This document shows positions 31,222-34,680 of a stretch of 64,000 bases of DNA, one piece after another. Both the position numbers and the translations under genes were made by a program. Every line of letters begins with the position of its first letter. The first letter of the stretch is position 1. The notes beneath the pieces are model-generated. The model saw only the letters and a list, made by a program, of their open reading frames with translations. It was not told where the DNA came from and ran no database searches. The DNA lies in contig NZ_CP032757.1 in the NCBI RefSeq assembly GCF_003641185.1, positions 2,046,001-2,110,000 on the forward strand. The letters run 5' to 3'. The DNA is from Lactiplantibacillus pentosus (GTDB lineage: Bacteria > Bacillota > Bacilli > Lactobacillales > Lactobacillaceae).

Positions 31222-31749
31222 CTAATTAATTTGATAGACGCACCACACCATCGATGGTGTCAGGCGCGCGAGTTGGCGTTCATTGTGCGTTAATGTCACA
31301 TTTTTTTCGTTGGTTAAGACGTAGGCGGCCTGATTTTCTTGATAGGCCTGATACGCTAAGTATTTACTGGCAGCAGTTTGGACTGTCACCCGCTGGACTA
31401 ATCGTTTGAGCAATTGTGCTGTTGCGGCGTGCGTATAGCCAATCTGGTTGTCGGCATCTAACCGTTGGACAACCACTAAGGGATCCAGTTTGGTCATAAA
31501 ACAATCGCACAATGTCAACTGATTCAGCAAGGCGTAGTGGACATCGCCCCAGCTTGCATGCAGCGTTGGCGATTTGAAGGCCGCGGGAATCACGAGCTGC
31601 GCACCCTGGTAAGCGTTCAGATTCGTCAAAATCGATTCAAAACTGGGATGGCCAACAATCGTCGCCTGCCCCTGCCAGACACGTTGGTTATAAGTCCACG
31701 CTGCCGCGTAACTATCAGTCGCTGTGGGACCTAATGTATGAATTTCCAT
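31222..31749 (-). CDS. Short prephenate dehydratase-like protein
   Basis: A 175-residue protein resembling the catalytic domain of prephenate dehydratase: LGPTATDSYAAA at the N-terminus, QLVIPAAFKSP near residue 52 where the family has its VPxENS-like loop, and IGYTHAATAQLL near 103. It differs in two ways: no ACT domain follows, and the Thr-Arg-Phe motif that carries the catalytic Thr is absent from the C-terminus, replaced by LTPSMVWCVY. It could be a divergent dehydratase, a ligand-binding relative or a decaying copy. It sits between aroC and aroA, 9 bases after aroC. Confidence 0.6.
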   Translation of the reverse strand: MEIHTLGPTATDSYAAAWTYNQRVWQGQATIVGHPSFESILTNLNAYQGAQLVIPAAFKSPTLHASWGDVHYALLNQLTLCDCFMTKLDPLVVVQRLDADNQIGYTHAATAQLLKRLVQRVTVQTAASKYLAYQAYQENQAAYVLTNEKNVTLTHNERQLARLTPSMVWCVYQIN

Positions 31750-31758
31750 ATTGACGTC

Positions 31759-32928
31759 CTAATATTGCCGAAGTTCGTCGCGGTAGTCGGCCAGCATCCG
31801 CTGTAGCCGTTGTAAGTTACTCCCATCAAACGTGGCAGTCAGCGCCCGCGCCAGTTCGATCGCCACGACACTCTCGACCACCAACGAGGCTGGCACGATG
31901 GCCGTCGTATCCGAACGTTCAACGCTAGCCTTTTGACGAACTTTAGTCGCAATGTCGACGCTTTGTAATGGCTTGTAAAGGGTTGGAATCGGCTTCATTG
32001 CGGCTTTGATCACAATTGGCATGCCATTCGTCATTCCGCCTTCAAAGCCGCCTAAATGATTGGTCAAACGGGACCAGCCGGCAGCCGTATCCCAGTCAAT
32101 TTCATCCATCACTTGACTTCCGTATTGCCCAGCGGCCGTAAAGCCATCACCGATCTCGACGCCCTTCATCGCGTTGACGCCCATGACAGCAGCTGCCAAC
32201 TGCCCATCTAACTTGGTGTCCCAATTTGTGTAGCTCCCCAGGCCAGCAGGAACATTTTCTGCAACGACGCGAATCACGCCCCCGAGGGTATCACCGGCTT
32301 TCTTAGTCGCCGTGATGAGGTCATGCAGCGCCTCAACTTGATCGTTAGCTTCAATCCGCAAATCGTTTTGGCTCACTCGTGCTTGTAGTTGGCTGACAGT
32401 TAGGGTGCCATCGACTGGAATCTGTGTCGCGCCAATCTGTTGTACGTAACCAATTAGCTGAATGTCCAACTGCGCCAACAGCTGTTTGCAAATCTGACCA
32501 ATGGCCACCCGCATGGCCGTTTCACGAGCAGAGGACCGTTCCAACACGTTGCGCAGGTCGCGGTGCCCATATTTCATGCCACCAACCAAATCCGCATGAC
32601 CGGGTCGTGGCCGTGTCACCTGTCGTAACGTATTGGTCGCAGTCGCAGGACTAAGTGGATCCATGATTGCTGACCAGTGCGCGTGGTCGCGGTTGGTGAT
32701 GGTTAACGCGATCGGCGAACCTAGTGTCACACCATGTCGCACCCCACCGGTAATTTGAACCGTGTCGTGTTCGATTTGTTGGCGATTACCGCGGCCAAAC
32801 CCACCCTGTCGCGCGGCTAACCCCGCATTGATGGCGTCGATATCTAATGAAAGTCCGGCGGGAATCCCGGTTAAAATGCCGCTCAATTGCGGGCCATGCG
32901 ATTCTCCGGCAGTGACGTAGTTAATCAT
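31759..32928 (-). CDS. aroC: Chorismate synthase
   Basis: A 389-residue FMN-dependent lyase making chorismate from EPSP. Signatures: TAGESHGPQL near residue 6, RPRPGHADLVG near 110, the RSSARETAMRV stretch near 130 and the C-terminal RSDTTAIVPAS. A 41-codon in-frame extension upstream is not real: AAGGAGG precedes the ATG at 32928, which overlaps the last 8 bases of the MFS/chorismate mutase gene. Confidence 0.97.
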   Translation of the reverse strand: MINYVTAGESHGPQLSGILTGIPAGLSLDIDAINAGLAARQGGFGRGNRQQIEHDTVQITGGVRHGVTLGSPIALTITNRDHAHWSAIMDPLSPATATNTLRQVTRPRPGHADLVGGMKYGHRDLRNVLERSSARETAMRVAIGQICKQLLAQLDIQLIGYVQQIGATQIPVDGTLTVSQLQARVSQNDLRIEANDQVEALHDLITATKKAGDTLGGVIRVVAENVPAGLGSYTNWDTKLDGQLAAAVMGVNAMKGVEIGDGFTAAGQYGSQVMDEIDWDTAAGWSRLTNHLGGFEGGMTNGMPIVIKAAMKPIPTLYKPLQSVDIATKVRQKASVERSDTTAIVPASLVVESVVAIELARALTATFDGSNLQRLQRMLADYRDELRQY

Positions 32929-34372
32929 GATTAATTTCCTCCTTGTGTAAATCGTGCAAATCTGTCTGGTAAGCGCGTGAGTTGCGCATAATGGCTTGAT
33001 AAATTGCTTGTAAGTACGGCGTGTGGGCCGTTTGTTTGCTCTTGGCGGCAACTTGATGTAACACCCGTTGTTCGCGTTGTTGATCTAGGACGGGCAACTG
33101 CTGCTGTTGTTTTAATTCACCGATTGCCGTGACCGTATCAAACCGCTCGTTGAGTAGACGGACGATCTGTTGGTCGATGTGGTTGATTCGCTGACGTTCT
33201 TGACTCAGTGACTTCGGACTGCGAATTGCCCAGGCCGCTAATCCCACGCAACCAATGCCGGCCACACCAATCAATAAATCGAACCGCATTGCCAACGCCA
33301 CGTTTTGCTGTGACAGCCAGCCGGTAATTAACGGAATCGTGAAGGACGCAATGCTGCCAAACGTGAAGTAAATACCGGTGACGCGTCCCTTAACTTGCGG
33401 GTACAGCTTAATGAATAAGTTCAGTGCGACCTGCATCACACCACCAGCCGCGGTAAACCCGAATGCGAGTGCCGCAATCATTGACAGTCCAGCGATTGGA
33501 CTGTAACAAATCACCAACAATGCAACTAAGGATCCGACATTCATCGCCACTAGTAATTTGGTCTCCGCCACACCGCGGCGTAATAACCAGAAAATCACGA
33601 GCACGCCGCTAATCGAACCGATGCTGTATAACGACAACAACCAATGTGCGAGTATCGCCGAAAAATGAAACGTGCGGGTCGCGAATAAGCTGATCCATTG
33701 CGTGTACAGAATCATGATTGCCATCGACGTGTAGCCGTATCCCGCAAGCCCAATCGTGGCCAGCCAACGCCGACCGTGACTGATTTGCTGACGAACGGCC
33801 AAGGCCGAAGCATTAGCTTGGTTACGAACGGGAAACTGCTGCCGATTAAGTAAAACGCCGTTGATGAGTAAAATGACCGCCGCCAACATGAACGACCACC
33901 CGTACCAAAGTTGCTGGGCTTCAAGGTTGGCAACCAGCAGTGGTAACAAGAATTCCCCAGCTGACATGAACGCTTTCAGTAAGACATTAGCAGAACCCTG
34001 GCGACCACCCATCTCGATAAACGTGGTATACGTGCCCGAGTCGAGGGCTGAATTCGCCACCCCGGCTAAAATTGCCAACCCATAAGCAACCTGAATGTTG
34101 GTCACTACGGCCATCCCGAGGAAGAAAATCAGGTAACTCGCCATCCCGATGTTGACGAACACTTTACGGCCAAACCGGTCTGATAAGTTGCCCAGAATAA
34201 AGTAAGCGAATAATCGACCAATCCCAATTCCTGAAATAACGTAGGAAACTGTCGCTAACGGGGTTTGCCAATGCTGCCCTAGCGCCTGCATATTTTGCGT
34301 TAAAATAATCAAGCCAATACCATGGACAAAATAGTTCAAGTAGAGACTAATTGATAACTGTCGTTGATGCAT
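32921..34372 (-). CDS. MFS transporter fused to a chorismate mutase domain
   Basis: A 483-residue fusion. Residues 1 to about 390 are a major facilitator permease with roughly twelve membrane helices and the loop 2-3 signature GNLSDRFGRKV near residue 60. Residues from about 395 are a cytosolic AroQ-type chorismate mutase: RINHIDQQIVRLLNERFD, AIGELKQQQ, DQQREQRVL and a final Gln-containing helix, which hold the Arg, Lys, Arg-Glu and Gln positions of that active site. Chorismate mutase makes prephenate, the substrate of tyrA in this operon. The permease substrate is unknown; an aromatic acid or shikimate pathway compound is the natural guess. First structural gene behind the attenuator. Confidence 0.88.
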   Translation of the reverse strand: MHQRQLSISLYLNYFVHGIGLIILTQNMQALGQHWQTPLATVSYVISGIGIGRLFAYFILGNLSDRFGRKVFVNIGMASYLIFFLGMAVVTNIQVAYGLAILAGVANSALDSGTYTTFIEMGGRQGSANVLLKAFMSAGEFLLPLLVANLEAQQLWYGWSFMLAAVILLINGVLLNRQQFPVRNQANASALAVRQQISHGRRWLATIGLAGYGYTSMAIMILYTQWISLFATRTFHFSAILAHWLLSLYSIGSISGVLVIFWLLRRGVAETKLLVAMNVGSLVALLVICYSPIAGLSMIAALAFGFTAAGGVMQVALNLFIKLYPQVKGRVTGIYFTFGSIASFTIPLITGWLSQQNVALAMRFDLLIGVAGIGCVGLAAWAIRSPKSLSQERQRINHIDQQIVRLLNERFDTVTAIGELKQQQQLPVLDQQREQRVLHQVAAKSKQTAHTPYLQAIYQAIMRNSRAYQTDLHDLHKEEINHD

Positions 34373-34392: not shown

Positions 34393-34431
34393 AAATAAAA
34401 AAGGCCAGCTAGATTGAATAATCTAGCTGGC
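34393..34431 (-). terminator. Attenuator terminator of the aro operon
   Basis: Minus-strand perfect 12-bp stem GCCAGCTAGATT (34420-34431) with AATCTAGCTGGC (34404-34415), 4-base loop, then CTTTTTTATTT. It ends 20 bases before the first structural gene. Confidence 0.95.
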
Positions 34432-34466
34432 TCATCAAATTTTAATTCCAATTGATGATTATTATT

Positions 34467-34569
34467 CCAGCTAGACTCACAGTGTCTAGCTGGTCAAGAT
34501 GAATTGACTCTGCTTAGACACGAACGTAGGTGCCGTCCGTATCTAAGGTTCCAATACGGGCGCTACCTA
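34467..34569 (-). promoter_or_regulatory. Attenuator control hairpins of the aro operon
   Basis: Minus strand, 5' to 3'. Hairpin 1 (34527-34569) pairs TAGGT with ACCTA and CCGTAT with ATACGG and overlaps the last leader codons. Hairpin 2 has a perfect 10-bp stem CCAGCTAGAC/GTCTAGCTGG (34467-34493). The 3' arm of hairpin 2 is also complementary to the 5' arm of the terminator, and GTGTCTAAGC (34512-34521) can pair with the 5' arm of hairpin 2, so two exclusive folds are possible. Confidence 0.85.
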
Positions 34570-34616
34570 AAATAAGCAAAGCCATAATAATAAGCTGTCG
34601 TGTTGAATTGAGTCAT
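34563..34616 (-). CDS. Aromatic leader peptide (4 Tyr, 3 Phe)
   Basis: A 17-residue reading frame, MTQFNTTAYYYGFAYFR, preceded by GAAAGGAT at about 8-10 bases and followed by TAG. Seven of 17 residues are Tyr or Phe, with three Tyr codons in a row. It lies about 30 bases after a good promoter and directly before the exclusive hairpins and terminator of an operon for Tyr/Phe synthesis. The arrangement is that of the enterobacterial pheA/trp attenuators: slow translation of Tyr/Phe codons during shortage should favour read-through. The frame is too short for gene finders. Confidence 0.85.
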   Translation of the reverse strand: MTQFNTTAYYYGFAYFR

Positions 34617-34651
34617 TATCATCTATCCTTTCCGTTTCATTGATTGTTTAT

Positions 34652-34680
34652 ATTAAAACATTCTCATTTAGATTCGTCAA
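34652..34680 (-). promoter_or_regulatory. aro operon promoter
   Basis: Minus strand TTGACG (34675-34680), 17-base spacer, TTTAAT (34652-34657). The start point would be near 34645, about 30 bases before the leader peptide. Confidence 0.75.

What the first reader, a model, noticed from the sequence alone, without database searches (positions are those of the whole stretch)
34393..34680. Tyr/Phe leader-peptide attenuator controls the aromatic operon
Promoter (34652-34680), a 17-codon leader with 4 Tyr and 3 Phe, hairpins whose arms can re-pair, and a perfect 12-bp terminator follow each other before the MFS/chorismate mutase gene. The 3' arm of hairpin 2 (GTCTAGCTGG) fits the 5' arm of the terminator (CCAGCTAGA), giving an antiterminator. 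Enterobacteria use such ribosome-mediated control; in Firmicutes T-boxes or TRAP are the better known routes for aromatic genes.
Basis: partly seen in the sequence, partly recalled or inferred. Interest (0 to 1): 0.78.

Follow-up and report, generated by a model that had tools for sequence, protein, structure and literature searches.

The report
Tyrosine-codon cascade attenuator, order-wide family
Upstream of an aromatic amino acid operon in a Lactiplantibacillus genome sits a short tyrosine-rich leader gene followed by a chain of RNA segments that can each pair with the next, so that a ribosome waiting for tyrosine should switch the operon on; the same RNA design, with other codons swapped in, appears across lactic acid bacteria and may explain an orphan riboswitch candidate and a listed small RNA.

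Summary
In detail: promoter, a 17-codon leader (MTQFNTTAYYYGFAYFR, stop 34565-34563), re-pairing arms and a 12-bp terminator. Seven segments a-g run from the stop codon to the T-tract, each complementary to the next; a leader segment z also pairs with y. Termination set: b:c, d:e, f:g. Readthrough set: a:b, c:d, e:f. Both show compensatory changes (58 sequences; 99). Masked folding of the window RNA gives antiterminator with a ribosome on Tyr codons and terminator with one at the stop, with exceptions by set-up and mixed results in relatives. Covariance models find the scaffold in 236 of 397 family and 177 of 395 order genomes (weak tail partly false), with leader codons matching the gene: Phe before prephenate-dehydratase-like genes, Tyr before aro genes, Ile/Leu/Val before ilv-type genes, Cys before one cystine-like binding protein. 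Rfam sRNA_2410 overlaps members, and 29 of the 30 trpB-motif loci read carry a Trp leader. No expression data.

The parts
34652..34680 (-). promoter: -35 TTGACG (34680-34675), 17-nt spacer, -10 TTTAAT (34657-34652)
   Evidence: sequence; closely similar hexamers in the printed upstream regions of relatives
34563..34616 (-). leader peptide gene MTQFNTTAYYYGFAYFR, stop codon TAG included
   Evidence: conserved frame and codons
34584..34592 (-). three Tyr codons TATTATTAT, predicted stall site (codons -9 to -7 before the stop)
34576..34584 (-). segment z TGGCTTTGC inside the leader, pairs with y
   Evidence: swap tests
34554..34562 (-). segment a CGCCCGTAT, directly after the stop codon; masked by a terminating ribosome; pairs with b (8 of 9 positions here)
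34534..34547 (-). segment b CTTAGATACGGACG, pairs with a or c
34513..34526 (-). segment c CGTTCGTGTCTAAG, pairs with b or d
34505..34513 (-). segment y GCAGAGTCA, pairs with z
34482..34493 (-). segment d CCAGCTAGACAC, pairs with c or e
34467..34477 (-). segment e AGTCTAGCTGG, pairs with d or f (antiterminator)
34420..34431 (-). segment f, 5' arm of the terminator
34397..34415 (-). segment g, 3' arm of the terminator, and T-tract
32921..34372 (-). first gene after the element: major facilitator transporter fused to chorismate mutase
   Evidence: PF07690 and PF01817
28280..33051 (-). following genes of the presumed operon: chorismate synthase, prephenate-dehydratase-like protein, EPSP synthase, prephenate dehydrogenase, shikimate kinase
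   Evidence: Pfam for all but the second; fold of the second

Best explanation
A ribosome-mediated transcription attenuator that senses charged tRNA-Tyr (Phe possibly as well) through a leader peptide and passes the ribosome's position down a chain of RNA segments. Fed cell: the ribosome reaches the stop codon and covers segment a, so b pairs with c, d with e, and f with g; f:g is the terminator and the operon stays off. Tyr-starved cell: the ribosome waits on the Tyr codons, covers z and leaves a free, so a pairs with b, c with d, and e with f; the terminator cannot form and the operon is read. With no ribosome on the leader, z pairs with y, which encloses a-b-c and should hinder c:d, so the default is probably off. 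Shown by sequence and comparison: leader, codon conservation, the six chain helices and z:y, gene content. Inferred: translation of the leader, stalling, order of folding, the role of z:y, termination in the cell.
For: Termination helices: 94.4% of 2050 cells paired, 26 of 36 pairs with changes on both sides. Readthrough helices, on the same alignment, which was fitted only to the termination set: 95.2% of 1476 cells, 17 of 26 pairs; none of 500 shuffles reaches either on any of five measures. Swap tests over 99 relatives beat all 200 permutations for the six chain helices and z:y. In the window RNA, antiterminator e:f 0.96-0.98 with the ribosome at Tyr -9 to -7 against 0.06 at the stop. Codons match genes in relatives: 6 of 6 prephenate-dehydratase-like leaders have Phe and none Tyr; 5 of 5 leaders before ilvB, ilvE and livJ-like genes are Ile/Leu/Val-rich (gene types checked for one of each by Pfam). 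RF02863 sRNA_2410, which by name is a 195-nt enterococcal RNA seen on Northern blots as two transcripts (PMC5593968, passages), matches 14 of 20 loci given to it up to E 0.1, 5 above its threshold.
Against: No measurement of termination or translation. Equilibrium folding of 91 relatives is mixed: e:f rises in 38, falls in 10, changes little in 43; c:d rises in 61, falls in 4. In the window RNA, e:f is still 0.55 with the ribosome at Tyr -3 and 0.42 with no ribosome; with a longer 5' part the no-ribosome state is off (0.03), but Tyr -9 gives only 0.12 and the non-regulatory Ala -10 gives 0.79. When only segments up to e are made, d:e wins at every ribosome position, so readthrough needs c:d to form first or to be restored once f appears. 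In 38 more distant members c:d does not exceed the best swap (15.82 against 15.93). RF02863 begins about 14 nt before the leader's stop codon, so the 195-nt RNA leaves out most of the leader gene and is not a plain full-length terminated transcript. Swap and shuffle tests do not remove shared ancestry.
Confidence: 0.88

Rival explanations
1. A shorter attenuator: leader, hairpin 2 and terminator, with the region between stop codon and hairpin 2 without a role.
For: Hairpin 2, antiterminator and terminator alone give a switch of the classical shape.
Against: The Tyr codons lie about 90-100 nt from hairpin 2, too far for a stalled ribosome to touch it (coordinates); a:b, b:c and c:d are conserved with compensatory changes.
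Confidence: 0.06
2. A riboswitch or protein-binding leader in which an aromatic compound or a protein is sensed directly and the small reading frame is incidental.
For: The related trpB motif was listed as a strong riboswitch candidate (PMC11109978, passages).
Against: Codon content follows the downstream gene while the RNA scaffold stays recognisable; no T-box or other Rfam family reaches its threshold in the window.
Confidence: 0.03
3. The short transcript acts in trans as a small RNA, with or without attenuation.
For: Rfam files the enterococcal relative as a small RNA, and its mapped extent leaves out most of the leader gene.
Against: Position before biosynthetic or transport genes, leader codons, and terminator/antiterminator pairing are explained by cis control.
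Confidence: 0.05

Closest known systems
trp and his operon attenuators of enterobacteria (recalled, from no call)
   Same: leader peptide with codons of the product; mutually exclusive helices; intrinsic terminator
   Different: as recalled, trp has four segments and his six; here seven plus z:y, the stop-codon ribosome acts by covering the first segment, and one scaffold serves several amino acids
ilv-leu leader of Staphylococcus aureus (PMC5794164, passages); BCAA leaders predicted in Lactococcus lactis and Streptococcus (as cited there and in PMC6123439, passages; originals not seen)
   Same: leader-peptide attenuation of an amino acid operon in Gram-positives; the lactococcal and streptococcal predictions may concern members of this family
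   Different: staphylococcal case: Leu/Ile only and a different proposed antiterminator; whether the cited lactococcal and streptococcal leaders share this scaffold was not tested
Rfam RF04312 trpB motif (PMC11109978, passages)
   Same: two hairpins, second a terminator, 3' arm of the first an antiterminator; 29 of the 30 best-scoring loci read here have a Trp leader
   Different: shorter chain a, b, c, f, g; described as riboswitch candidate, the authors not ruling out a classic attenuator
Rfam RF02863 sRNA_2410
   Same: covers the cascade of relatives, including the second copy in this genome (40.1 bits, cut-off 61)
   Different: filed as a small RNA; starts about 14 nt before the leader's stop codon; the window locus itself does not match it
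uORFC-13-1 of Acholeplasma (PMC8632094, section 26 read)
   Same: leader with Phe codon before an aromatic pathway gene
   Different: 24 sequences, one genus plus environmental, before aroF; no cascade described

Membership tests
ribosome-mediated (leader-peptide) attenuators | short reading frame with ribosome-binding site, conserved as coding | tested here: met
   (frame and codons; a third-position excess is seen in 14 close relatives only)
ribosome-mediated (leader-peptide) attenuators | codons of the pathway's product in the leader | tested here: met
ribosome-mediated (leader-peptide) attenuators | terminator and exclusive antiterminator, both conserved | tested here: met
ribosome-mediated (leader-peptide) attenuators | ribosome position decides between the two folds | tested here: inconclusive
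   as expected at most positions in the window RNA, with exceptions, and mixed in 91 relatives; equilibrium folding only
ribosome-mediated (leader-peptide) attenuators | readthrough rises when the tRNA is uncharged | not testable with these tools
   needs experiment
T-box | match to the T-box covariance model | tested here: not met
   no Rfam match at gathering in the whole window
Rfam RF04312 trpB motif | score over gathering threshold 59 | tested here: not met
   window locus 32.5 bits
Rfam RF02863 sRNA_2410 | score over gathering threshold 61 | tested here: not met
   window locus no match up to E 1; second copy in the genome 40.1 bits
TRAP-regulated leaders | array of spaced GAG/UAG repeats | not tested
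   no repeat scan was run for it

The most novel reading that the evidence does not exclude
One ancestral RNA scaffold, found in at least seven of the nine families sampled in this order of lactic acid bacteria, works as an exchangeable attenuator chassis: an odd number of segments starting at the leader's stop codon, with the sensing codons swapped to suit the gene (Tyr, Phe, Trp, Ile/Leu/Val, Cys). It includes the orphan riboswitch candidate 'trpB motif' as its Trp form with five segments and the listed small RNA sRNA_2410 as its terminated, perhaps processed, transcript, and z:y adds a third state that keeps the gene off when nothing is translated.
Probability: 0.62. Interest if true: 0.85.

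Novelty: new variant of a known kind. Interest (0 to 1): 0.75.

Why it matters
These bacteria are usually discussed in terms of T-boxes for amino acid genes (recalled); here many of the same kinds of genes would be under ribosome control through one shared scaffold. If true, the leader codons predict the substrate of unassigned transporters and enzymes (a Phe leader on TrpX-like binding proteins, a Tyr leader on an NhaC-like carrier, a Phe leader on an orphan prephenate-dehydratase-like protein), an orphan riboswitch candidate gets a mechanism, and the chain of exchangeable segments gives a ready test of how far a ribosome's position can be relayed along an RNA.

Tried and rejected
Weak own-genome hits at 2825848 and 2367921 and hits outside the order in G1018, G848, G752, G900 and G995 were read and rejected: no fitting leader, mainly a palindromic terminator. 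Of 15 genomes outside the order with a class-scan match I read 6; only G838 is real, with two copies; the other 9, all with E of 3e-4 or weaker, were not read. Hits in order family f8 are all weak (E 8e-5 or worse) and were not read. Eleven antisense rows of A2 and three antisense rows plus one duplicate of A4 were dropped before counting; L185, L186 and L190 fell out because a segment was missing from the alignment. From the family scan I fetched and aligned a chosen part of the listed hits, not all: six near-duplicates among the fetched loci (L070, L092, L103, L111, L126, L144) were left out. L023 has a Tyr-rich leader but a different layout and was left out of A1. The masked-fold survey used 91 of 99 relatives. 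A first run of the segment script stopped with an error and was repeated. Position-specific substitution counts show no third-position excess over all 99 leaders (0.434, 0.561, 0.521 by codon position), though 14 close relatives do (0.103, 0.183, 0.272). In the trpB loci c:f does not exceed the swaps (17.82 against a maximum of 18.33), and a:b is short in L211 and L229. Literature searches without a report of an aromatic leader-peptide attenuator in lactic acid bacteria: (one search was on enterococcal small RNAs); only open-licence full texts were searched, and of the papers listed only those named here were opened, as passages or one section.

Full report
What is there. On the minus strand a sigma-70-type promoter (34680-34652) is followed by a leader gene of 17 codons, MTQFNTTAYYYGFAYFR, whose stop codon TAG is at 34565-34563, then by about 160 nt of structured RNA ending in a 12-bp terminator with a T-tract (34431-34397), and then by six aromatic genes in a row: transporter-chorismate mutase fusion, chorismate synthase, a prephenate-dehydratase-like protein, EPSP synthase, prephenate dehydrogenase and shikimate kinase. 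No Rfam family reaches its threshold in the window.

The chain. Reading 5' to 3' after the stop codon, segments a (34562-34554), b, c, d, e, f and g are each complementary to the next. The set b:c, d:e, f:g contains the terminator; the set a:b, c:d, e:f contains the antiterminator; they exclude each other. A further segment z inside the leader pairs with y between c and d.

Conservation. All 17 genomes of the genus with the orthologous gene (of 21 sampled) carry leader and chain (the genus Lactiplantibacillus is named). On 21 sequences both sets show compensatory changes (in one search one of five measures is reached by 84 of 500 shuffles). On 58 sequences aligned only to the termination set, 95.2% of the readthrough cells still pair, with both-sided changes in 17 of 26 pairs, and none of 500 shuffles reaches that; the termination set has 94.4% and 26 of 36. 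Over 99 relatives, of which the 58 are a part, the six helices pair in 86.5% to 97.2% of cells. Each chain helix, and z:y, pairs better within its own sequence than in any of 200 permutations of partners. In 38 further members (36 from other families of the order, L189 from outside it, and L067 from this genome) six of the seven pass the same test; c:d does not. These counts do not remove shared ancestry.

Mechanism. A ribosome stopped at the stop codon covers a; one waiting on the Tyr codons covers z and leaves a free. Folding the window RNA with those stretches masked gives d:e 0.94 and e:f 0.06 at the stop, and e:f 0.96-0.98 at Tyr -9 to -7; in that set-up e:f is 0.64 at Phe -5, 0.55 at Tyr -3 and 0.42 with no ribosome. 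With more 5' sequence e:f is high at -10 and -8 to -6, low at -9 (0.12), at Phe -5 (0.04), at the stop (0.01) and with no ribosome (0.03). Across 91 relatives c:d rises in 61 and falls in 4, but e:f rises in 38, falls in 10 and changes little in 43. In every state the transcript cut after e favours d:e. The direction fits; equilibrium folding does not prove it.

The wider family. Model R1 hits 236 of 397 genomes of the family at E up to 0.01; model R2 hits 177 of 395 of the order at E up to 0.001 and 37 of 398 of the class. Outside the order 15 genomes matched; of the 6 read only G838 held true members, two of them. Within the order, loci with leader and chain were read from families f1, f2, f3, f4, f5, f7 and f9 of nine. 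The weakest hits include false ones. The genome of the window has three copies: this one; one with a Phe-only leader before a TrpX-like binding protein; and a weak-scoring one (E 3e-4) with a Phe/Tyr/Trp leader before an aminotransferase, whose c:d and d:e are short. Among 137 aligned members, leaders before the prephenate-dehydratase-like gene have Phe and no Tyr (6 of 6); those before TrpX-like proteins within the family have Phe and no Tyr (20 of 20), while outside it 21 of 26 have Tyr; those before the transporter (53 of 53 with a readable leader, of 54), chorismate mutase (7 of 7) and AroE (12 of 12) have Tyr; the five before ilvB, ilvE and livJ-like genes have Ile/Leu/Val; one cystine-like binding protein has five Cys codons, and the other member of that class has Tyr. 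Gene labels come from BLAST to references, one of each class of which was checked by Pfam or NCBIfam, except the prephenate-dehydratase-like one, which has no family match. A copy before a transketolase (L190) fits the aromatic pathway too.

Two catalogue entries. RF02863, an enterococcal small RNA, matches 14 of 20 loci given to it up to E 0.1, 5 above threshold, and 84 of 148 order genomes at E up to 0.001, 37 over the cut-off. The paper reports 195 nt and two transcripts on Northern blots for sRNA_2410 (passages); the model begins about 14 nt before the leader's stop codon, so the catalogued RNA is the cascade without most of the leader gene. RF04312, the trpB motif, matches 87 of 148, 35 over the cut-off. 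Of the 30 best-scoring loci, 29 carry a leader with Trp codons, 26 of them with W-x-x-W, with an a-type segment near the stop codon that pairs with the first arm of the motif (median 8 bp); a:b and b:c beat all swaps there, c:f does not. Several trpB hits lie inside RF02863 or R2 hits, mostly with a weak score of one of the two models. I take the trpB motif to be the Trp form with five segments; its authors left the attenuator possibility open.

What is known. Leader-peptide attenuation in Gram-positives is described for ilv-leu in Staphylococcus aureus, is reviewed as experimentally implicated in Listeria monocytogenes and as predicted for branched-chain genes of Lactococcus lactis and Streptococcus (passages), and for his genes in bacilli. 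So ilv-type members in this order may have been predicted before; I did not see those originals. I found no report of the aromatic family in lactic acid bacteria in the open-licence library (searches in Tried and rejected). It works like, and by the features tested belongs to, ribosome-mediated attenuators; the long odd-numbered chain, z:y and the shared scaffold with exchanged codons are what appears new.

Noticed in passing
window 31222-31749 (-): 175-residue protein without any Pfam or NCBIfam match; its predicted structure (pLDDT 94.8) has prephenate dehydratase 3mwb as best PDB match (E 2e-9, 13% identity, TM 0.54), though many periplasmic-binding-type folds match as well; the genome has no PF00800 match while 14 of 14 controls do, and 6 of 6 relatives that follow the element directly have Phe-only leaders: probably the missing prephenate dehydratase.
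   Followed up: partly
window 32921-34372 (-): A major facilitator transporter fused to a chorismate mutase domain heads the operon; substrate unknown.
   Followed up: no
L137 251-462: The same scaffold with a leader of five Cys codons (QSNCCCTCCMI) before a binding protein closest to the cystine family, below its cut-off.
   Followed up: partly
L142 and L143: Tyr-rich leader and cascade before an NhaC-like carrier just under the NCBIfam cut-off (366.5 of 370, L142): possibly a tyrosine transporter.
   Followed up: no
L190: Leader MMMIKQKGCFQLNRYYYFGWFS before a transketolase (PF00456) in a genome outside the order (G838); transketolase supplies erythrose 4-phosphate to the aromatic pathway.
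   Followed up: partly
L211-L240: Rfam trpB-motif loci, 29 of 30 with a Trp leader peptide directly upstream.
   Followed up: yes
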